Origin: Nematopogon swammerdamellus
Lineage: Eukaryota; Arthropoda; Insecta; Lepidoptera; Adelidae
Length of the DNA stretch: 64,000 nucleotides
Assembly: GCA_946902875.1 (NCBI GenBank)
Contig: OX336337.1
Location: 5,022,001 to 5,086,000 of the forward strand
Direction of reading: 5' to 3'
Shown: piece by piece, positions 4,262-56,459 of the stretch
How positions within the stretch are numbered: the stretch's first letter is position 1
How the letters are laid out: every line of letters begins with the position of its first letter
Made by a program: the position numbers and the translations under genes
Notes under the pieces: model-generated
Database searches by the model: none
The model's input: only the letters and a program-made list of their open reading frames with translations
Told to the model about the DNA's origin: nothing

Positions 4262-5632
4262 GAAACCATGTTCCAATTGACTTGCAACCATTCCATGTTC
4301 CATGAAGCAGTTCCATGCAATGCAACCATAACATGTTCCATGGACCAGTCCCATGCAATAAATCCATTCCATGTTCCATGAACCAGTCCCATGTAATGCA
4401 ACCATTCCATGTTCCATGAACCAGTCCAATGCAATGCAACCATTCCATGTTCCATGAACCAGTCCAATGCAATGCAACCATTCCATGTTCCATGAACCAG
4501 TCCCATGCAATGCAACCATTCCATGTTCCGTGAACCAGTCCCATGCAATGCCACCATTCCATGTTCCGTGAACCAGTCCCATGCAATGCAACCATTCCAT
4601 GTTCCATGAACCAGTCCCATGCAATGCAACCATTCCATGTTCCGTGAACCATTCCATGCAATGCAACCATTCCATGTTCCGTGAACCAGTTCAATGCAAT
4701 GCAACCATTCCATGTTCCATGAACCAGTCCCATGCAATGCAACCATTCCATGTTCCGTGAACCAGTCCCATGCAATGCAACCATTCCATGTTCCATGAAC
4801 CAGTCCAATGCAATGCAACCATTCCATGTTCCATGAACCAGTCCCATGCAATGCAATCATTCCATGTTCCGTGAACCAGTCCCATGCAATGCAACCATTC
4901 CATGTTCCGTGAACCAGTCCCATGCAATGCCACCATTCCATGTTCCGTGAACCAGTCCAATGCAATGCAACCATTCCATGTTCCATGAACCAGTCCCATG
5001 CAATGCAACCATTCCATGTTCCGTGAACCAGTCCCATGCAATGCAAGCATTCCATGTTCTATGAACCAGTCCAATGCAATGCAACCATTCCATGTTCCAT
5101 GAACCAGTCCCATGCAATGCAACCATTCCATGTTCCGTGAACAAGTCCCATGCAATGCAACCATTCTATGTTCCATGAACCAGTCCAATGTAATGTAACC
5201 ATTCCATATTCCATGAACCAGTCCCTTGCAATGAAACCATTCCATGTTCCATGAACCAGTCCCATGAAATGCAACCATTCCATGTTCCGTGAACCAGTTC
5301 CATGCAATTGAACCATTCCATGTTCCATGAACCAGTTCCATGCAATGCAATGCACCATTCCATGTTCCGTGAACCAGTTTCATGCAATTGAACCATTCCA
5401 TGTTCCATGAACCAGTTCCATGCAATGCAATGCACCATTTCATGTTCCGTAAACCAGTTCCATGCAATTGAACGATTTTATGTTCCATAAACCTGTTCCA
5501 TAAACCAGGCCCATGCAATGCAACCATTCCATGTTCCGTGAACCAGTTTCGTGCAATTGAATCATTTCATGTTCCATAAAACAGTTTTATGCAATACAAT
5601 CATTCCATGTTCCACGCACCATTTCCATGCAA
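4262..5632. repeat. 38-bp satellite array, about 36 units
   Basis: The unit is built from CCATTCCATGTTCC, a variable A or G, then TGAACCAGTC and CCATGCAATGCAA. Three units equal 114 bp, so the translated - strand repeats every 38 residues. The unit has no stop codon in any of the three - frames, which leaves overlapping open frames of up to 289 codons. Edges (after about 5440) are more diverged, as usual for tandem arrays. I regard the frames as artefacts of the array. Confidence 0.93.
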
Positions 5633-23945: not shown

Positions 23946-24540
23946 TACTAGAATAAGTCCGCCTTTGCCCCTCACTTATATTATTTAACAAACTTGTGTC
24001 TGTAAAATCTTTGCAGCAATAAATAATTTCTAGCTATCTAGAAAAAAGATAAAATTAAAAGAAACCAATTATGTATATAAGGTCTTTCAAAATTAGTTAA
24101 TAGTACGCTAGGGGGGGAGGTTCTGTATCGGAAATAGATCACTTTTGAAGAAGAAAGAATTTTTTTTTTATAAAAGAATTTTTTTTTAATGTAAAATGTA
24201 AAAAACAATTTTTTCTCAATCGTTTCAGTTTAATGCCAGGAACAAAAAAGTCTTCCAACACATAGATCTCTTTCTTTCAGAAATTGTGAAAAACCACAAT
24301 TTTAGTTTTATTAGTATGGAATAGAAAGAATTTGATTTTTTTTACCATCTTACACGTGTTACATCATAATAGTAATGAAGACTTTTTTGTTACTGTTATG
24401 AAACTGAATCGATTAGACAAAAATCAACCACTTATTTTTTTATTTAAGGCCGTGACAAACGCCAACGACCTTGAGCATTCGGGAATTCTACATAATGTAC
24501 CATGCGACTGCTAATTTCGCTTCGCACGTTCAAGTCACAT

Positions 24541-24603
24541 TTAGCGTAGTTTGTCGCTATCAGCCTAAAGAGTTGATGGTTCGGGGTTCGAATCCCACTT
24601 TCG
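24541..24603 (+). other. tRNA-like segment inside the TTAA element
   Basis: The segment includes a possible D-arm (GCG...CGC), a stem ATCAGC/GTTGAT around a 7-base loop, and a perfect B-box core GGTTCGAATCCC-like (GGGGTTCGAATCCCAC). No matching acceptor stem was found, so it is not a functional tRNA; it may be a SINE head or internal promoter relic. The same segment is at about 49912-49974 in copy B. Confidence 0.5.
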
Positions 24604-25595
24604 TATGTTTTTTTTTTTTGCTTTTTTATTATTTTAATTATTAAAATGATTGTGGCTTATGTAACTGATGCGTGATTCTAATTTTTTATTTTTTATTATT
24701 TTACCTAAATAACATTTTATTGTAATTTCTTCCAAATTATTTTAGTTCATGTACTTACCACTTTTTATAAACCTCTAAATAGACTATCGATGAAAACTAA
24801 AATAAAAATAGGTAGGTAGGTAATAGGTAGATAGGCATTTAGGTATGTATGGCAAATATCATAGCAACATAGGTACCGGCCGGCGCGCGCGGCGCGCGCG
24901 GCGGCAGCATGGCACGGTGCGGTGGGGTCGGTGCGGTGCGGTAACTCAGTAGCAGCGTGCCACTCACGCATGCAAGCAAGCAATAACAAGCCGCTCCTGC
25001 CCGCCGCGCCGCCGCTCCTCCGCGCCGCGCCGCGCCGCCGCGTCGTCACCGCTCCGCGCCACCACAGTGCCGCCGCCGCCGCCGCCCCCGCTCCGCAGCG
25101 CGCCGCTGTTGCTAGGCTACTTTTATTTAGGCACGGTTCTATAGTCCTTGCATCTCAAGCGCAGACAGCGTTATACCACACCCGTGACACTAGTCACATT
25201 TTCTATGAAGCGGCCGAAAATGTGTACCTACTGCTCACGTACGCGGGCGCCTTTGCGTGTATTGGTGCGACCTCGATAACTTGGGTACAGGGTTGGCACT
25301 CTTTATGAGAAGTTTGTAGTGGACAATATTATAAATTATATTTGGTGTAATTTAAAAGGAAACATTTTTAATTATGACTATCTATGTATATGTACCTCTT
25401 AACATTATTGGAGGGCAAGAAAAAAAGAAAAACATCAACTTATATGCACATGTTTTATTTTTACTCGCTAACTAAACGACAATTTTGCAGTGAAAGTTTC
25501 ACTAAATTTTGGAAACTTTGCAATAGGTATTCCATTTTTATTATTTTTAAGCCGAATCGTATGTGAAGCTAAAGTGAAATTTTCAATGTATACTT

Positions 25596-28335
25596 GCCGC
25601 CATTTTGAACTTTTTAGTTACTGGACCGATTGCTTTCAAAATTGATATCTGGGTGTCTGTGTAGGCTCTGAATACGAATCTGTAATCAAAATTAAAAAAA
25701 AGTGGCCGCCATTTTGAACTTTTTAGTTACTGGACCGATTGCTTTCAAAATTGATATCTGGGTGTCTGTGTAGGCTCTGAATACGAATCTGTAATCAAAA
25801 TAAAAAAAAGTGGCCGCCATTTTGAACTTTTCAGTTACTGGACCGATTGCTTTCAAAATTGATATCTGGGTGTCTGTGTAGGCTCTGAATACGAATCTGT
25901 AATCAAAATAAAAAAAAGTGGCCGGCATTTTGAACTTTTCAGTTACTGGACCGATTGCTTTCAAAATTGATATCTGGGTGGCTGTGTAGGCTCTGAATAC
26001 GAATCTGTAATCAAAATAAAAAAAAGTGGCCGCCATTTTGAACTTTTTAGTTACTGGACCGATTGCTTTCAAAATTTATATCTGGGTGTCTGTGTAGGCT
26101 CTGAATACGAATCTGTAATCAAAATAAAAAAAGTGGCCGCCATTTTAAACTTTTCAGTTACTGGACCGATTGCTTTCAAAATCGATATCTGGGTGTCTGT
26201 GTGGGCTCGGAATACGAATCTGTAGTCAAAATTAAAAAAAAGTGGCCGCCATTTTGAACTTTTTAGTTACTGGACCGATTGATTTCAAAATTGATATCTG
26301 GGTGTCTGTGTAGGCTCTGAATACGAATCTGTAGTCAAAATTTAAAAAAAGTGGCCGCCATTTTGAACTTTTCAGTTACTGGACCAATTGCTTTCAAAAT
26401 CGATGTCTGGGTGTCTGTGTGTGCTCTGAATACGAATCTGTAGTCAAAATTAAGTGGCCGCCATTTTAAACTTTTTAGTTACTGGACCGATTGCTTTCAA
26501 AATAGATATCTGCGTGTCTGTGTGGGCTCTAAATATGAATCTGTAGTCAAAACTTAAAAGTGCAAGATGGCGGCAACTATTTTTAAATTTTGAAAACGGA
26601 TTCGTATTCAGAGCCCATACAGATACCCAGATATCAATTTTGAAAGCAATCGGTCCAGTAACTAAAAAGTTCAAAATGGCGGCCACTTTTTTTTAATGTT
26701 CACTACAGATTCGTATTCAGAGCCCACGCAGACACCCAGATATCGATTTTGAAAGCAATCGGTCCAGTAACTAAAAAGTTCAAAATGGAGGCCGTTTTTT
26801 TTTTTATTTTGACAACGGATTCGTATTCAGAGCCCACACAGACACCCAGATATTGATTTTGAAAGCAATCGGTCGAATAACTAAAAAGGTCAAAATGGCG
26901 GCAACTTTTTTTAAATATTCACTACATATTTGTATTCAGAGTCCACACAAACACCCAGATATCGATTTTGAAATCAATCGGTCCAGTAATTAAAAAGTTC
27001 AAAATGGCGGCAACTTTTTTTAAATGTTCACTACAGATTCGTATTCAGAGCCCACACAGACACCCAGATATCGATTTTGAAAGCAATCGGTCCAGTAACT
27101 AAAAAGTTCAAAATGGCAGCCGCTTTTTTTAAATTTTGACAACGGATTCGTATTCAGAGTCCACACAGACACCCAGATATCGACTTTGAAAGCAATCGGT
27201 CCAGTAACTAAAAAGTTCAAAATGGCGGCCACTTTTTTTAAATTTTGACAACGGATTCGTATTCAGAGTCCACACAGACACCCAGTTATCGACTTTGAAA
27301 GCAATCGGTCCAGTAACTAAAAAGTTCAAAATGGCGGCCACTTTTTTTAAATTTTGACAACGGATTCGTATTCAGAGCCCACACAGACACCCAGATATTG
27401 ATTTTGAAAGCAATCGGTCGAATAACTAAAAAGGTCAAAATGGCGGCAACTTTTTTTAAATATTCACTACATATTTGTATTCAGAGTCCACACAAACACC
27501 CAGATATCGATTTTGAAATCAATCGGTCCAGTAATTAAAAAGTTCAAAATGGCGGCAACTTTTTTTAAATGTTCACTACAGATTCGTATTCAGAGCCCAC
27601 ACAGACACCCAGATATCGATTTTGAAAGCAATCGGTCCAGTAACTAAGAAGTTCAAAATGGCAGCCGCTTTTTTTAAATTTTGACAACGGATTCGTATTC
27701 AGAGTCCACACAGACACCCAGATATCGACTTTGAAAGCAATCGGTCCAGTAACTAAAAAGTTCAAAATGGCGGCCACTTTTTTAAATTTTGACAACGGAT
27801 TCGTATTCAGAGTCCACACAGACACCCAGATATCGACTTTGAAAGCAATCGGTCCAGTAACTAAAAAGTTCAAAATGGCGGCCACTTTTTTTAAATTTTG
27901 ACAACGGATTCGTATTCAGAGCCCACACAGACACCCAGATATCGACTTTGAAAGCAATCGGTCCAGTAACTAAAAAGTTCAAAATGGCGGCCACTTTTTT
28001 TAAATTTTGACAACGGATTCGTATTCAGAGCCCACACAGACACCCAGATATCGACTTTGAAAGCAATCGGTCCAGTAACTAAAAAGTTCAAAATGGCAGC
28101 CGCTTTTTTTAAATTTTGACAACGGATTCGTATTCAGAGCCCACACAGACACCCAGATATCGACTTTGAAAGCAATCGGTCCAGTAACTAAAAAGTTCAA
28201 AATGGCGGCCACTTTTTTTAAATTTTGACAACGGATTCGTATTCAGAGCCCACACAGACACCCAGATATCGACTTTGAAAGCAATCGGTCCAGTAACTAA
28301 AAAGTTCAAAATGGCGGCCACTTTTTTTAAATGTT
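25596..28335. repeat. 109-bp satellite in two opposed blocks (copy A)
   Basis: From about 25596 to 26567 the unit reads GCCGCCATTTTGAACTTTTT onwards (about 9 units). From about 26570 to 28335 it reads in the opposite direction, with AAAATGGCGGCCAC marking each unit (about 16 units). The unit length is 109, with occasional 108 variants. Short frames such as those starting MAAILNFLVTGPIAFK recur with the period and are not genes. The two blocks can pair as one hairpin with arms near 1 kb. Confidence 0.93.
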
Positions 28336-29124
28336 CATATGATTAAGATTCGCTCCGGTGAAGGAAAACACCGTGAGGAAACCTGTGCACAGCAGTACAT
28401 ATAAAATTGTTGTGGACACCGCTTCCAATCCAGCTTGTCACGTGGAAATGTATAACAATTCCCTTCCATGTTCATGGGAAAGGCTTGCGCTCAGTAGTAG
28501 GACATTAAAATTGACTCAAGAAGAAGAATAAGAAACCAAATTGATATCTGATTTGTGTAACATAAATTTCATTATTTCACATAAGAATGAAAATTTCACA
28601 GTAATTTTGCAGAAAGTGCAAAATTTCACTGCAAAATTTCAAGTGAAATTTTTGTGCAAAATTGCGCCTTGCATCTCTAAGTAAGTGCGAACAAGGAGGT
28701 TTGAAGTCCACCGCGCGCGCGGGCGCGGCCGGCCCGATCGTTGTTCTGTGCTGTGAGTGCGAAAGAACCGCGCGCGTACGTGTAAGTAGCTACTACTCCC
28801 TCTCGAAGGTGCGCTCGCTCTCCTCTCGACAGTCGGTGCCAGCCTGACTAGCCGTCCGCCAGAAGTCGACCAGACAGCGCTCGCGGGCTGCGGGGCGCGG
28901 GGGGAAGCAAACTCGCTTCGAGGCGGAGCGTCGCTTCTATACGCCAGTATTATAAGTATTCTATGGTTATACCACAGTACCTATTAGTTATTCTGTGGTT
29001 ATACCAACGAAAGCCATGCATATAACGCCCCGTCAAGTTACGTACCCGAGCGTATACTGATAGATACCACAGAAGAGAGATATTACTGATACGGTCGTAC
29101 TGTATACTGGTACGGAAAATGACA

Positions 29125-29400
29125 CGGTGGCAACATCACCTACAATACAACATCCGAGATGTCAGCTCGTAACAACTGGTGAAGTAGGTGCTATGTCAGT
29201 GCTTTTCTTCGGTCGTACCGGCTTCACTGAACTGGACGGAAAAAAAGAAGGGAGTCATATCCCGAAATAGTTTGTATTTTCCGTCCAGTTTAGTGTAGCC
29301 GGCACGACCAAAGGGAAGCACTGACATGGCACCTAAGTTCACCCGGTGTTATGGGCTGACATCACGGATGTTATAGGTGATATAGCAAACTGTGTCAGTT
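29125..29400. repeat. Head-to-head pair of SINE S1 3-prime parts
   Basis: Left GTCGTACCGGCTTCACTGAA pairs with right GTGTAGCCGGCACGAC, and the flanks (CATCACCTACAA and TATAGGTGATATAG) also pair, giving a fold-back of about 270 bp. The same structure is in copy B at about 55255-55530. Confidence 0.7.
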
Positions 29401-30327
29401 TACATAAAAAAATCCCTCAGTCGCCTTTTACGACATGCACGGGGAGAGATGCAGTGGGGCTATTATTTTAAATTACCATCCCACACGGTACAAATATACC
29501 TAACCACCTATCTTTTTTCCATTCGATCCAAACACAGAAGACAGAAATGACGACCGACACGCGGGCGCAGCAGGGCAGGAGCGAGCAAGCGAGCCCGGAA
29601 CTAAAATTGTATCTAGTATTGAAGTGCCTGCTAAATTGACGAAGGCAAAAATTTTACCCTTCCGACTGAAGAATTACGTCAATAATTTCATGTAGGCGTT
29701 TTTTGTTTTTTATTTTTATCTCCTTTCGTGGATAAAATAATAAAAAAAATTGAATAGAGTTTTCTCAGAGCTTTGTGACCTTTGAATCGGTGGTATTGTA
29801 AAATTGTAATAATACACACATACTCAGATTTTCAAAAATTCATGCTTTTTTTATATATTTTTAATTTTATGTTTATTACTTACTTTTACTCATTATTAAA
29901 AAAACCAGCAATGCACTTTGTTGGTAAGGAACCAAAATATAGGTTGGTATTTTTTTAATTTTCTGAATGTGTGTCAATTGGTCAGTTTTGGACCTTCTTT
30001 GTCGCACTTTTTGCATGTTTTGCGTATTTGGCGTTTGTCACCGCCTTAAATACATAAAATAAAAACATATTTTACATAAAAAAAAAGACCAAGGTCCAAA
30101 AAATTTTATATAGGTTTTACTCACTATATGATACAGAACCCCCCCTTAGCGTACTATTAACTAATTTTGAAAGACCTTATATAAATAAAACATATTCACA
30201 CACATTCACACCGGGATACTTAAGTGGTGAGGGCTACATTTTAACATGTTTTTATCGTGAAAGGTAATTAATGCCAATAAAAAATTTTCCATAAAAAAAA
30301 TCATCATATTACAATGTTATTGAGATC

Positions 30328-32500: not shown

Positions 32501-32504
32501 TGTA

Positions 32505-32955
32505 ACCTAACCTAACCTAACCTAACCTAACCTAACCTAATCTAACCTAACGCAACCCAATCCAATCAACCCATCACAACCCAACCAAAAACAACACAAC
32601 AACACAACCCAACCTAACCTAACCTAACCTATCCAAACCTAACCTAATCTAACCTAACCCAACCCAATCCAATCCAACCTAACCTAACCTAACCTAACCT
32701 AATCTAACCTAACGCAACCCAATCCAATCAATCCATCACAGCCCAACCAAAAACAACACAACAACACAACCCAACCTAACCTAACCTAACCTATCCAAAC
32801 CTAACCTAATCTAATCTAACCTAACCCAACCCAATCCAATCCAACCGAACCTAACCTAATCTAATCTAACCTAACGCAACCCAATCCAATCAACCCATCA
32901 CAACCCAACCAAAAACAACACAACAACACAACCTATCCTAACCTAACCAAACTGT
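32505..32955. repeat. Degenerate telomere-like (CCTAA)n block with 162-bp higher-order period
   Basis: Runs of CCTAA (the insect TTAGG telomere unit on the other strand) alternate with CCAATCC and AACACAACAAC segments. The landmark CGCAACCCAATCCAATCA recurs at 32551, 32713 and 32875, so about 2.8 units of 162 bp are present. It is an internal block, not a chromosome end. Confidence 0.85.
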
Positions 32956-49390: not shown

Positions 49391-49818
49391 AATTTTTTTT
49401 CGTATCAAATAGTTATTTTCGCAAATAAATATTTAATCCACGTGTTGCTAAAGAGTCAAACTATTATATACTAGGCAATCAACGAGTTGCCAACTGTGCC
49501 GCAGCCTTGTAAATCCCAGCCCCCATCAACCTACATATAGTTAACGTATTGATAATTTGTATGTATAAAGCATTAACCATTTGTTTTGTAACAGTTATAC
49601 TGATCGTGGTTAGTAGGAAATGTCCACACTAAGACGTCCTCAATTCGATTATCTCCGCGTACTGCTGCGCGTAAGGAAATGGTTATGTAATAAAAATTAC
49701 ACGATACTGTGCTCTCGTCGGGGTGGTCGGGGTAGGGCGGAGCGCGAGGGCGGGCGGGGCATAAAAGATTTTTCACGACATCCGAGCGGCGAACCACTGT
49801 GAGGTAATAATGTTTTAA
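49391..49818. other. Intron DNA upstream of TTAA copy B
   Basis: AT-rich, with a G-rich stretch at 49717-49760 (GGGGTGGTCGGGGTAGGGCG). No exon supported. Confidence 0.4.
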
Positions 49819-52800
49819 GGCCGTGACAAACGCCAACGACCTTGAGCATTCGGGAATTCTACATAATGTACCATGCGACTGCTAATTTCGCTTCGCACGT
49901 TCAAGTCACATTTAGCGTAGTTTGTCGCTATCAGCCTAAAGAGTTGATGGTTCGGGGTTCGAATCCCACTTTCGTATGTTTTTTTTTTTTGCTTTTTTAT
50001 TATTTTAATTATTAAAATGATTGTGGCTTATGTAACTGATGCGTGATTCTAATTTTATATTTTTTATTATTTTACCTAAATAACATTTTATTGTAATTTC
50101 TTCCAAATTATTTTAGTTCATGTACTTACCACTTTTTATAAACCTCTAAATAGACTATCGATGAAAACTAAAATAAAAAAAGGTAGGTAGGTAATAGGTA
50201 GATAGGCATTTAGGTATGTATGGCAAATATCATAGCAACATAGGTACCGGCCGGCGCGCGCGGCGCGCGCGGCGGCAGCATGGCACGGTGCGGTGGGGTG
50301 CGGTGCGGTGCGGTAACTCAGTAGCAGCGTGCCACTCACGCATGCAAGCAAGCAATAACAAGCCGCTCCTCCGCGCCGCGCCGCCGCTCCTCCGCGCCGC
50401 GCCGCGCCGCCGCGTCGTCACCGCTCCGCGCCACCACAGTGCCGCCGCCGCCCCCGCTCCGCAGCGCGCCGCTGTTGCTAGGCTACTTTTATTTAGGCAC
50501 GGTTCTATAGTCCTTGCATCTCAAGCGCAGACAGCGTTATACCACACCCGTGACACTAGTCACATTTTCTATGAAGCGGCCGAAAATGTGTACCTACTGC
50601 TCACGTACGCGGGCGCCTTTGCGTGTATTGGTGCGACCTCGATAACTTGGGTACAGGGTTGGCACTCTTTATGAGAAGTTTGTAGTGGACAATATTATAA
50701 ATTATATTTGATGTAATTTAAAAGGAAACATTTTTAATTATGACTATCTATGTATATGTACCTCTTAACATTATTGGAGGGCAAGAAAAAAAGAAAAACA
50801 TCAACTTATATGCACATGTTTTATTTTTACTCGCTAACTAAACGACAATTTTGCAGTGAAAGTTTCACAAAATTTTGGAAACTTTGCAATAGGTATTCCA
50901 TTTTTATTATTTTTAAGCCGAATCGTATGTGAAGCTAAAGTGAAATTTTCAATGTATACTTGCCGCCATTTTGAACTTTTTAGTTACTGGACCGATTGCT
51001 TTCAAAATTGATATCTGGGTGTCTGTGTAGGCTCTGAATACGAATCTGTAATCAAAATTAAAAAAAAGTGGCCGCCATTTTGAACTTTTTAGTTACTGGA
51101 CCGATTGCTTTCAAAATTGATATCTGGGTGTCTGTGTAGGCTCTGAATACGAATCTGTAATCAAAATAAAAAAAAGTGGCCGCCATTTTGAACTTTTCAG
51201 TTACTGGACCGATTGATTTCAAAATTGATATCTGGGTGTCTGTGTAGGCTCTGAATACGAATCTGTAATCAAAATAAAAAAAAAGTGGCCGCCATTTTGA
51301 ACTTTTCAGTTACTGGACCGATTGCTTTCAAAATTGATATCTGGGTGGCTGTGTAGGCTCTGAATACGAATCTGTAATCAAAATAAAAAAAAGTGGCCGC
51401 CATTTTGAACTTTTTAGTTACTGGACCGATTGCTTTCAAAATTGATATCTGGGTGTCTGTGTAGGCTCTGAATACGAATCTGTAATCAAAATAAAAAAAG
51501 TGGCCGCCATTTTAAACTTTTCAGTTACTGGACCGATTGCTTTCAAAATCGATATCTGGGTGTCTGTGTGGGCTCGGAATACGAATCTGTAGTCAAAATT
51601 AAAAAAAAGTGGCCGCCATTTTGAACTTTTTAGTTACTGGACCGATTGATTTCAAAATTGATATCTGGGTGTCTGTGTAGGCTCTGAATACGAATCTGTA
51701 GTCAAAATTTAAAAAAAGTGGCCGCCATTTTGAACTTTTCAGTTACTGGACCAATTGCTTTCAAAATCGATGTCTGGGTGTCTGTGTGTGCTCTGAATAC
51801 GAATCTGTAGTCAAAATTAAGTGGCCGCCATTTTAAACTTTTTAGTTACTGGACCGATTGATTTCAAAATTGATATCTGGGTGTCTGTGTAGGCTCTGAA
51901 TACGAATCTGTAGTCAAAATTTAAAAAAAGTGGCCGCCATTTTGAACTTTTCAGTTACTGGACCAATTGCTTTCAAAATCGATGTCTGGGTGTCTGTGTA
52001 TGCTCTGAATACGAATCTGTAGTCAAAATTAAGTGGCCGCCATTTTAAACTTTTTAGTTACTGGACCGATTGCTTTCAAAATAGATATCTGCGTGTCTGT
52101 GTGGGCTCTAAATATGAATCTGTAGTCAAAACTAAAAAGTGCAAGATGGCGGCAACTATTTTTAAATTTTGAAAACGGATTCGTATTCAGAGCCCATACA
52201 GATACCCAGATATCAATTTTGAAAGCAATCGGTCCAGTAACTAAAAAGTTCAAAATGGCGGCCACTTTTTTTTAATGTTCACTACAGATTCGTATTCAGA
52301 GCCCACGCAGACACCCAGATATCGATTTTGAAAGCAATCGGTCCAGTAACTAAAAAGTTCAAAATGGAGGCCGTTTTTTTTTTATTTTGACAACGGATTC
52401 GTATTCAGAGCCCACACAGACACCCAGATATTGATTTTGAAAGCAATCGGTCGAATAACTAAAAAGGTCAAAATGGCGGCAACTTTTTTTAAATATTCAC
52501 TACATATTTGTATTCAGAGTCCACACAAACACCCAGATATCGATTTTGAAATCAATCGGTCCAGTAATTAAAAAGTTCAAAATGGCGGCAACTTTTTTTA
52601 AATGTTCACTACAGATTCGTATTCAGAGCCCACACAGACACCCAGATATCGATTTTGAAAGCAATCGGTCCAGTAACTAAAAAGTTCAAAAAGGCAGCCG
52701 TTTTTTTTTAATTTTGACAACGGATTCGTATTCAGAGTCCACACAGACACCCAGATATCGACTTTGAAAGCAATCGGTCCAGTAACTAAAAAGTTCAAAA

Positions 52801-55800
52801 TGGCGGCCACTTTTTTTAAATTTTGACAACGGATTCGTATTCAGAGTCCACACAGACACCCAGATATCGACTTTGAAAGCAATCGGTCCAGTAACTAAAA
52901 AGTTCAAAATGGCGGCCACTTTTTTTAAATTTTGACAACGGATTCGTATTCAGAGCCCACACAGACACCCAGATATTGATTTTGAAAGCAATCGGTCGAA
53001 TAACTAAAAAGGTCAAAATGGCGGCAACTTTTTTTAAATATTCACTACATATTTGTATTCAGAGTCCACACAAACACCCAGATATCGATTTTGAAATCAA
53101 TCGGTCCAGTAATTAAAAAGTTCAAAATGGCGGCAACTTTTTTTAAATGTTCACTACAGATTCGTATTCAGAGCCCACACAGACACCCAGATATCGATTT
53201 TGAAAGCAATCGGTCCAGTAACTAAGAAGTTCAAAATGGCGGCCGCTTTTTTTTAATTTTGACAACGGATTCGTATTCAGAGTCCACACAGACACCCAGA
53301 TATCGACTTTGAAAGCAATCGGTCCAGTAACTAAAAAGTTCAAAATGGCGGCCACTTTTTTAAATTTTGACAACGGATTCGTATTCAGAGTCCACACAGA
53401 CACCCAGATATCGACTTTGAAAGCAATCGGTCCAGTAACTAAAAAGTTCAAAATGGCGGCCACTTTTTTTAAATTTTGACAACGGATTCGTATTCAGAGT
53501 CCACACAGACACCCAGATATCGACTTTGAAAGCAATCGGTCCAGTAACTAAAAAGTTCAAAATGGCGGCCACTTTTTTAAATTTTGACAACGGATTCGTA
53601 TTCAGAGTCCACACAGACACCCAGATATCGACTTTGAAAGCAATCGGTCCAGTAACTAAAAAGTTCAAAATGGCGGCCACTTTTTTTAAATTTTGACAAC
53701 GGATTCGTATTCAGAGTCCACACAGACACCCAGATATCGACTTTGAAAGCAATCGGTCCAGTAACTAAAAAGTTCAAAATGGCGGCCACTTTTTTAAATT
53801 TTGACAACGGATTCGTATTCAGAGTCCACACAGACACCCAGATATCGACTTTGAAAGCAATCGGTCCAGTAACTAAAAAGTTCAAAATGGCGGCCACTTT
53901 TTTTAAATTTTGACAACGGATTCGTATTCAGAGCCCACACAGACACCCAGATATCGACTTTGAAAGCAATCGGTCCAGTAACTAAAAAGTTCAAAATGGC
54001 GGCCACTTTTTTTAAATTTTGACAACGGATTCGTATTCAGAGCCCACACAGACACCCAGATATCGACTTTGAAAGCAATCGGTCCAGTAACTAAAAAGTT
54101 CAAAATGGCAGCCGCTTTTTTTAAATTTTGACAACGGATTCGTATTCAGAGCCCACACAGACACCCAGATATCGACTTTGAAAGCAATCGGTCCAGTAAC
54201 TAATAAGTTCAAAATGGCAGCCGCTTTTTTTAAATTTTGACAACGGATTCGTATTCAGAGCCCACACAGACACCCAGATATCGACTTTGAAAGCAATCGG
54301 TCCAGTAACTAAAAAGTTCAAAATGGCGGCCACTTTTTTTAAATTTTGACAACGGATTCGTATTCAGAGCCCACACAGACACCCAGATATCGACTTTGAA
54401 AGCAATCGGTCCAGTAACTAAAAAGTTCAAAATGGCGGCCACTTTTTTTAAATGTTCATATGATTAAGATTCGCTCCGGTGAAGGAAAACACCGTGAGGA
54501 AACCTGTGCACAGCAGTACATATAAAATTGTTGTGGACACCGCTTCCAATCCAGCTTGTCACGTGGAAATGTATAACAATTCCTTTCCATGTTCATGGGA
54601 AAGGCTTGCGCTCAGTAGTAGGACATTAAAATTGACTCAAGAAGAAGAATAAGAAACCAAATTGATATCTGATTTGTGTAACATAAATTTCATTATTTCA
54701 CATAAGAATGAAAATTTCACAGTAATTTTGCAGAAAGTGCAAAATTTCACTGCAAAATTTCAAGTGAAATTTTTGTGCAAAATTGCGCCTTGCATCTCTA
54801 AGTAAGTGCGAACAAGGAGGTTTGAAGTCCACCGCGCGCGCGGGCGCGGCCGGCCCGATCGTTGTTCTGTGCTGTGAGTGCGAAAGAACCGCGCGCGTAC
54901 GTGTAAGTAGCTACTACTCCCTCTCGAAGGTGCGCTCGCTCTCCTCTCGACAGTCGGTGCCAGCCTGACTAGCCGTCCGCCAGAAGTCGACCAGACAGCG
55001 CTCGCGGGCTGCGGGGCGCGGGGGGAAGCAAACTCGCTTCGAGGCGGAGCGTCGCTTCTATACGCCAGTATTATAAGTATTCTATGGTTATACCACAGTA
55101 CCTATTAGTTATTCTGTGGTTATACCAACGAAAGCCATGCATATAACGCCCCGTCAAGTTACGTACCGGAGCGTATACTGATAGATACCACAGAAGAGAG
55201 ATATTACTGATACGGTCGTACTGTATACTGGTACGGAAAATGACACGGTGGCAACATCACCTACAATACAACATCCGAGATGTCAGCTCGTAACAACTGG
55301 TGAAGTAGGTGCTATGTCAGTGCTTTTCTTCGGTCGTACCGGCTTCACTGAACTGGACGGAAAAAAAGAAGGGGGTCATATCCCGAAATAGTTTGTATTT
55401 TCCGTCCAGTTTAGTGTAGCCGGCACGACCAAAGGGAAGCACTGACATGGCACCTAAGTTCACCCGGTGTTATGGGCTGACATCACGGATGTTATAGGTG
55501 ATATAGCAAACTGTGTCAGTTTACATAAAAAAATCCCTCAGTCGCCTTTTACGACATGCACGGGGAGAGATGCAGTGGGGCTATTATTTTAAATTACCAT
55601 CCCACACGGTACAAATATACCTAACCACCTATCTTTTTTCCATTCGATCCAAACACAGAAGACAGAAATGACGACCGACACGCGGGCGCAGCAGGGCAGG
55701 AGCGAGCAAGCGAGCCCGGAACTAAAATTGTATCTAGTATTGAAGTGCCTGCTAAATTGACGAAGGCAAAAATTTTACCCTTCCGACTGAAGAATTACGT

Positions 55801-56166
55801 CAATAATTTCATGTAGGCGTTTTTTGTTTTTTATTTTTATCTCCTTTCGTGGATAAAATAATAAAAAAAATTGAATAGAGTTTTCTCAGAGCTTTGTGAC
55901 CTTTGAATCGGTGGTATTGTAAAATTGTAATAATACACACATACTCAGATTTTCAAAAATTCATGCTTTTTTTATATATTTTTAATTTTATGTTTATTAC
56001 TTACTTTTACTCATTATTAAAAAAACCAGCAATGCACTTTGTTGGTAAGGAACCAAAATATAGGTTGGTATTTTTTTAATTTTCTGAATGTATGTCAATT
56101 GGTCAGTTTTGGACCTTCTTTGTCGCACTTTTTGCATGTTTTGCGTATTTGGCGTTTGTCACCGCC
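49819..56166. mobile_element. TTAA-flanked TIR element, copy B (6.35 kb)
   Basis: Same ends as copy A (GGCCGTGACAAACGCCAA and its inverse), with TTAA at 49815-49818 and 56167-56170. Outside the satellite it is nearly identical to 24448-30045, with only scattered single-base changes and small indels (for example near 50300 and 50370). The 750-bp length difference lies almost wholly in the 109-bp arrays. Such similarity at an unrelated flank means recent movement or recent gene conversion. Confidence 0.87.
50965..54452. repeat. 109-bp satellite in two opposed blocks (copy B)
   Basis: About 11 units in one direction to about 52137, then about 21 units in the other direction. The right block contains three 217-bp double units (109+108), a higher-order pattern starting at 53143, 53360 and 53577. 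Confidence 0.93.
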
Positions 56167-56459
56167 TTAAGGAACAATCCTAGATGCGGCATTCATACAA
56201 ATTCAATGCAACAAATATATTAGGTTAAAATGTATGGTAGCGATATTAGATAAGTATTATATGGTGCGCTCCTCGCATGGCTCTTCGACGTTCTGCGGGG
56301 GATCCTTGACAGCGCTGAGCTGCTGCAGGAGTTGAAACTGAAGGCGTCTACATGCAGGACGAGTCACACCACATTATTTTTTGCAAAACTCTGAGCCACT
56401 AACTACGTGCAGCGAATTGTCACTCCAAGGATAACTCGCACACACACACACACATATAC

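What the first reader, a model, noticed from the sequence alone, without database searches (positions are those of the whole stretch)
24448..30045. A TTAA-target element family built around a giant fold-back of 109-bp satellites
Seen: two copies (also 49819-56166) share an 18-bp TIR (GGCCGTGACAAACGCCAA), TTAA on both sides, and an internal 109-bp array that flips orientation in the middle, with arms near 1 kb or more. Known: TTAA targets are typical of piggyBac, whose TIRs start CCC, and, as far as I recall, of Sola3. This TIR starts GGC and fits neither well. Inference: a non-autonomous, satellite-carrying element whose transcript would be a very long hairpin, a possible source of small RNAs.
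Basis: partly seen in the sequence, partly recalled or inferred. Interest (0 to 1): 0.82.

Follow-up and report, generated by a model that had tools for sequence, protein, structure and literature searches.

The report
Moth jumping element carrying satellite fold-back
In a moth or butterfly genome, a recently active jumping DNA element, apparently without genes of its own, carries a large mirror-image block of repeated satellite DNA to hundreds of places, and the same mirror-image block also sits inside other, unrelated repeats.

Summary
Confirmed and extended. Both copies are full-length members of a young, dispersed, apparently non-autonomous DNA-transposon family ("A"). The genome holds 1,455 TTAA+TIR ends. 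Among the first 100 listed, 42 pairs form, each with one GGCC- and one GGCG-end. TTAA flanks both sides of 15 of 15 copies checked, two of them diverged relatives. Two copies, one a satellite carrier, have a paralogous empty site with a single TTAA.

Of the 42 pairs, 27 are short (1-2.3 kb; none of the 9 fetched has the array) and 14 carry it. It has one origin in A: 7 of 7 copies share left edge and inversion centre (one base differs in e1), the centre occurs 247 times, and unit order is conserved while unit number varies.

Unexpected: the head-to-head 109-bp array is not private to A. It occurs in at least two other repeat families with unrelated arms, and family B has A's inversion junction in mirror image. 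A seems to have captured an older palindromic core.

TTAA plus GG..CC termini fit Kolobok better than piggyBac, but no partner transposase was found. Small RNAs were untestable.

The parts
24444..24447 (.). TTAA target, left of copy e1
24448..24465 (+). left TIR of copy e1 (GGCC form)
24448..25595 (+). left arm of e1 outside the array; its first ~40 bp are shared with diverged relatives L022, L025, L026
25170..25180 (+). 11-bp GTTATACCACA, left copy; short copies such as L019 and L021 are joined at this repeat
25596..26559 (+). 109-bp array, + arm of e1 (9 anchored units)
26543..26573 (+). inversion centre of e1; 247 exact matches to the centre pattern in the genome
26551..28332 (-). 109-bp array, - arm of e1 (17 anchored units)
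28333..30045 (+). right arm of e1 outside the array; contains a short hairpin repeat also found elsewhere in the genome
28966..28976 (+). 11-bp GTTATACCACA, right copy
30028..30045 (-). right TIR of e1 (GGCG form, 1 mismatch)
30046..30049 (.). TTAA target, right of e1
49815..49818 (.). TTAA target, left of copy e2
49819..49836 (+). left TIR of copy e2
50962..52138 (+). 109-bp array, + arm of e2 (11 anchored units)
52122..52152 (+). inversion centre of e2
52130..54453 (-). 109-bp array, - arm of e2 (22 anchored units)
56149..56166 (-). right TIR of e2 (GGCG form)
56167..56170 (.). TTAA target, right of e2

Best explanation
The element is a non-autonomous cut-and-paste DNA transposon inserted at TTAA and moved in trans by a transposase encoded elsewhere, most likely of the Kolobok type. 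Shown: dispersed near-identical copies, polar TIR ends, TTAA on both sides, paralogous empty sites. Inferred: cut-and-paste, the helper and its superfamily. One lineage acquired, once, an already existing palindromic core of 109-bp satellite units, and transposition then spread it to about 250 sites (247 exact centres). The block is inherited, with unit-level duplications and deletions changing arm lengths. The core has its own wider history, since the same head-to-head array occurs in other repeat families with unrelated arms. A read-through transcript of the array would be a long double-stranded hairpin; its processing into small RNA is a prediction only.
For: Copy number: 787 exact left-type TIRs and 1,455 TTAA+TIR ends, reversed-pattern controls 0. 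Polarity: 42 of 42 pairs among the first 100 listed ends have one C-end and one G-end. TTAA on both sides of 15 of 15 copies with both ends in view, two of them diverged relatives; unrelated flanks (e1 against e2 1-kb flanks no hit). Paralogous empty sites for array copy L016 and short copy L009. Youth: six array copies differ by 0.31% on average over the last 1,080 bp (15 pairs). Single array origin: left edge identical in 7 of 7, centre in 7 of 7 (one base differs in e1), right edge in the 5 of 5 in view apart from single bases; 247 exact centres; conserved order of unit types. Wider core: 14,026 unit hits, 41 of the first 100 outside A elements at 10 places; families B and C; B's L051 has A's inversion junction in mirror image exactly, L052 with small changes; arms of B do not match arms of A. 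The Kolobok rule, TTAA with 5'-RR..YY-3' (PMC9587614, passages), is met by GG..CC.
Against: No autonomous copy or transposase with this TIR was found. None of the 15 long copies among 42 pairs is autonomous, and the rest of the 1,455 ends could not be inspected. Of 24 THAP and 8 piggyBac hits on contigs C1-C3, one THAP hit lies within 10 kb of a listed exact left TIR, at 5.3 kb, and its frame holds a stop. About 600 bp upstream of the THAP match in four long THAP ORFs showed no such TIR next to TTAA. Direction of array transfer is inferred: long and short forms are joined at an 11-bp repeat, which fits either an insertion or a deletion. Family C's centre looks different from A's, so a common inversion is shown only for A and B.
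Confidence: 0.75

Rival explanations
1. The two copies are a segmental duplication of a locus, not transposition.
For: Two copies lie in the window, 25 kb apart.
Against: 1,455 TTAA+TIR ends in the genome; 1-kb flanks of e1 and e2 share nothing; TTAA on both sides of 15 of 15 copies; two paralogous empty sites.
Confidence: 0.01
2. The helper is a piggyBac transposase; the element is a piggyBac-type MITE with aberrant GG ends.
For: TTAA target; many piggyBac transposase matches in this genome, most without a stop in the matched stretch (117 listed matches).
Against: Termini GG..CC. In 2 of 10 piggyBac loci fetched, TIR pairs next to TTAA were recognisable and start CCC or CAC; the other 8 gave none within 4.5 kb. 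0 of 8 piggyBac hits on C1-C3 lie within 10 kb of a listed exact left TIR.
Confidence: 0.2
3. The helper is a Sola3 transposase (TTAA target, as recalled by the first reader and by me).
For: TTAA target; Sola3 MITEs are listed for insects (PMC5199201, passages).
Against: None gathered: Sola3 termini and transposase were not tested here; no Sola model was run.
Confidence: 0.1
4. The array is private to A in origin and grew inside it, as TIR-220 did inside Tetris; arrays elsewhere were seeded from A.
For: Among arrays seen, those of A are the longest, and 59 of the first 100 unit hits are in three A elements.
Against: Units of B and C are more diverse (mean 13% and 11%) than A - arm (6%) and A + arm (9%) units, and the letters in the majority in only one arm of A are in the minority in B and C at most of those positions (13 B and 13 C units only). 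B and C places carry no A-arm sequence outside the array apart from matches of about 30 bp at one place.
Confidence: 0.15
5. The inverted array arises again and again at each site by local inversion or palindrome formation.
For: Arm lengths differ between copies.
Against: Same centre to the base in 247 places and conserved order of unit types in seven copies.
Confidence: 0.03

Closest known systems
Xmix / Xstir (T2-MITE, Xenopus)
   Same: Non-autonomous TTAA element, attributed to Kolobok, whose amplified internal segment forms a tandem repeat family (PMC6004289, passages; the original Xstir papers were only seen cited).
   Different: In the passages seen it is a MITE with an amplified tandem segment; here the array is a head-to-head palindrome of 109-bp units in a 4-9 kb element, and the core is shared with other repeat families.
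Tetris (Drosophila virilis fold-back transposon)
   Same: Non-autonomous, modular, tandem repeats (TIR-220) on both inverted sides, a shorter relative (DAIBAM), source of satellite arrays (PMC4079207, abstract and one Results section).
   Different: Tetris repeats lie within long TIRs and its target duplications are 8-10 bp; here TIRs are 18 bp, the target is TTAA, and the palindrome is central between unlike arms.
CMITEs of corals
   Same: Attributed to piggyBac-like transposons (TTAA target, recalled); can form tandem arrays (PMC2872659, abstract).
   Different: There whole MITEs are tandem; here an internal satellite is.
TE-LNCR of Spodoptera frugiperda
   Same: High-copy, unclassified lepidopteran element with tandem repeats and small RNAs (PMC3184123, passages).
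   Different: About 2 kb, short tandem repeats at one end only; no TTAA or fold-back in the passages seen; sequence not compared.

Membership tests
Kolobok superfamily | TTAA target site duplication | tested here: met
   15 of 15 complete copies; single TTAA at two paralogous empty sites
Kolobok superfamily | termini 5'-RR..YY-3' | tested here: met
   GG..CC in the copies examined; rule from PMC9587614 (passages)
Kolobok superfamily | DDE transposase, usually with THAP domain, between matching TIRs | tested here: inconclusive
   150 scored THAP matches of 950 candidates, none tied to this TIR; most TIRs could not be inspected
piggyBac superfamily | TTAA target | tested here: met
piggyBac superfamily | termini beginning CC(C) or similar (recalled; seen as CCC and CAC in this genome) | tested here: not met
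   GGC termini here; CCC/CAC in the 2 of 10 piggyBac loci with recognisable TIRs
piggyBac superfamily | DDE_Tnp_1_7 transposase between matching TIRs | tested here: inconclusive
   117 listed matches; 0 of 8 on C1-C3 near a listed exact left TIR
Sola3 | Sola3 transposase and termini | not tested
   no model or sequence at hand
Fold-back elements (FB, Tetris) | long terminal inverted repeats that reach the ends and hold tandem repeats | tested here: not met
   TIR 18 bp; palindrome internal, unlike outer arms
MITE (non-autonomous TIR element) | TIRs, fixed target, no transposase, many near-identical copies | tested here: met
   size exceeds the usual MITE range (recalled)

The most novel reading that the evidence does not exclude
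The head-to-head 109-bp satellite palindrome is itself a mobile module, a selfish fold-back core that moves between unrelated transposon families (A at TTAA, B, C and others), by nested transposition or template switching. It rides whichever host element is active, and its long hairpin RNA feeds small RNAs that act in trans on all the families that carry it.
Probability: 0.25. Interest if true: 0.78.

Novelty: new variant of a known kind. Interest (0 to 1): 0.52.

Why it matters
It shows, at base-pair resolution, how a satellite can be dispersed to hundreds of sites: a palindromic satellite core appears to have been captured once by an active TTAA transposon and amplified with a readable barcode of unit types. 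The 247 copies with one inversion centre are natural replicates for measuring how palindromic arrays gain and lose units, and whether such hairpins make siRNA or piRNA. The mirror-image junction shared with family B makes the movement of satellites between transposon families directly testable.

Tried and rejected
1. Segmental duplication: rejected.

2. Autonomous partner among long copies: none in the 15 long copies of the first 42 pairs. L014 is a short copy with a nested palindromic element carrying a transposase-like fragment (no Pfam match; 48-63% identical relatives in many arthropods). L020 (its first element, not counted as a pair) holds nested reverse-transcriptase insertions.

3. hAT reading of family C (CAGTG inner palindrome, similar 8-bp flanks): withdrawn, because homology between C copies continues outside that palindrome.

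4. tRNA gene or known RNA in the element: ARAGORN 0 in the window; Rfam gave five matches, all below gathering score.

5. TIR or satellite in viral contigs: 0.

Full report
Observation. The left TIR is GGCCGTGACAAACGCCAA and the right one GGCGGTGACAAACGCCAA. Shuffled sequence gives 0.05 such matches per window. The window lies in G000, contig C6:5022001-5086000, of a 699-Mb assembly in 39 contigs. A window exon finds 75 proteins; of the named ones all but one (Timema) are of Lepidoptera, e.g. Papilio, Diatraea, Pararge, Plutella, so the host is most likely a moth or butterfly, species unnamed.

It is a transposon family. The genome holds 787 exact left-type TIRs and 1,455 TTAA+TIR ends of either type, with 0 in the reversed control of both searches. 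Only the first 100 places are listed per search. Of those, 84 fall into 42 pairs and 16 are unpaired. Every pair has one C-type and one G-type end. Lengths split into 27 short (963-2,329 bp) and 15 long (4,182-9,313 bp). Of 20 neighbourhoods fetched from the list, 20 have TTAA before the left TIR. The 15 copies whose two ends lay in the fetched or window sequence all have TTAA on both sides; two of these are the diverged relatives L025 and L026, and loci whose right end was out of reach were not counted. The 1-kb flanks of e1 and e2 share nothing.

Empty sites. Joined at one TTAA, the flanks of the array-bearing copy L016 align at 86% over 162 bp to an uninterrupted repeat 1.3 kb away. The flanks of short copy L009 align to two uninterrupted repeats with one TTAA (86-87%, 4-base gap beside the TTAA). 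The other 13 joined sites gave no crossing match in the sequence held. This is insertion with duplication of TTAA, and it covers a satellite-bearing copy too.

Age. Over the last 1,080 bp, six array copies differ by 0.31% on average (15 pairs, maximum 0.56%); all 16 copies average 1.24%, raised by L012, part of whose aligned stretch is foreign.

Who carries the array. Of the 15 long copies in the 42 pairs, 14 carry it (five, nine). The fifteenth, L014, is a short copy with a nested palindromic element. Of the 27 short pairs, 9 were fetched and none has the array; 18 were not looked at. In short copies such as L019 and L021, left and right parts join at an 11-bp sequence, GTTATACCACA, that stands at both ends of the extra segment in the long form. 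This is what an insertion with an 11-bp duplication, or a deletion between short repeats, would leave; I cannot decide which.

One origin inside family A. In seven long copies the left edge is identical, the inversion centre is identical except for one base in e1, and the right edge is the same apart from single bases in the five where it was in view. The centre pattern occurs 247 times genome-wide, reversed control 0. All 15 listed hits on C1 and on C2 up to 17.2 Mb fall in A elements: 13 inside listed pairs, two beside a single listed TIR. Thirteen of the 14 array copies above have the exact centre; the copy at C2:5194959 does not. Arm lengths vary: 7-13 anchored units in the + arm and 9 to at least 28 in the - arm (two copies cut at the end of the fetched stretch); L030 has about 2 in one arm. 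Units form types (22 distinct among 62 in + arms, 36 among 129 in - arms) that keep the same order from copy to copy with blocks gained or lost (order read by eye). The array is therefore inherited through transposition and edited by local duplication and deletion.

The array is wider than family A, and seems older. A unit pattern has 14,026 exact hits (reversed control 0). Of the first 100, 59 lie in three A elements (one inferred from a single TIR) and 41 at ten other places. I looked at eight of those ten, four of them only at their edges. Four places belong to one family, B (L051, L052, L060, L062); in L051 and L052 the arms outside the array are themselves inverted repeats, and a B edge pattern has 109 exact hits. 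Three belong to family C (L053, L054, L056/L057). One, L058/L059, fits neither. In seven of the eight the array is also head to head; at the eighth (C1:2567564) only one arm was seen. Outside the array, B places gave no match to the arms of A; L053 (C) and L058/L059 gave only matches of about 30-90 bp, the longest in a short repeat that is common in this genome. A's centre read on the other strand gives the junction TTTAG|TTTTGACTAC, which L051 has exactly and L052 with small changes. A's right edge starts like B's, with AAATGTTCA. C's centre looks different. B and C units are more diverse than A - arm and A + arm units (mean 0.13 and 0.11 against 0.06 and 0.09; only 13 units each of B and C). 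The simplest reading is that A acquired a piece of an older palindromic satellite core in the opposite orientation and then amplified it.

How it moves. The short TIRs, fixed TTAA and lack of a transposase gene in the copies seen point to trans-mobilisation. The TTAA target with RR..YY termini is the Kolobok rule (PMC9587614, passages), and Kolobok TIRs of Xenopus such as AGGACGTGTCAACCCT (PMC6004289, passages) look similar by eye to GGCCGTGACAAACGCC; this is a lead, not a test. piggyBac matches are abundant (117 listed), but the two of ten fetched loci with recognisable TIR pairs start CCC or CAC. THAP matches in open frames over 900 aa are present, but about 600 bp upstream of the THAP match in four of them held no such TIR next to TTAA. 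Of 24 THAP hits on C1-C3 one lies 5.3 kb from a listed left TIR; of 8 piggyBac hits, none within 10 kb. The helper therefore remains unidentified.

Hairpin. A 1,000-nt RNA across the centre of e1 folds into one long stem (-640 kcal/mol; no shuffle control was run). No RNA data were available, so transcription and small RNAs are predictions.

Verdict. A real, recently active, apparently non-autonomous TTAA transposon family and a new variant of a known kind (compare Xmix/Xstir and Tetris). The surprise is the shared palindromic satellite core with a mirror-image junction in a second family.

Noticed in passing
L014:5938-9901, continuing into L029: Nested insertion that is itself a palindrome (arms about 1.2 kb, 96% identical) and holds a 152-aa transposase-like frame with no Pfam match but relatives in many arthropods.
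   Followed up: partly
24585-24595: GGTTCGAATCC, a pol III B-box-like word (consensus recalled), followed by a T run near the left end of e1; no tRNA called by ARAGORN, no Rfam tRNA match.
   Followed up: partly
29197-29323: Short hairpin in the right arm (match to MIR9555 below gathering score) that is part of a repeat found at many other places in the loci fetched.
   Followed up: partly
32503-32952: Interstitial (TAACC)n, the insect telomere repeat (recalled), within a 162-bp tandem array.
   Followed up: no
L020:1004-8875: Two family members abut and share a single TTAA; the first carries two reverse-transcriptase insertions.
   Followed up: partly
G000:C30:8.9-9.6 Mb: Dense cluster of THAP-domain matches (dozens within 0.7 Mb), unlike dispersed transposons; may be a host gene family.
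   Followed up: no
L022, L025, L026: Diverged relatives share about 40 bp at the left end; L025 and L026 also share the right terminal ~40-75 bp, while L022 keeps related right-arm sequence but not the terminal bases. Probable transposase-binding ends to use in searching for the helper.
   Followed up: partly
4283-5632: 38-bp tandem array of about 1.3 kb, apparently unrelated to the element.
   Followed up: no
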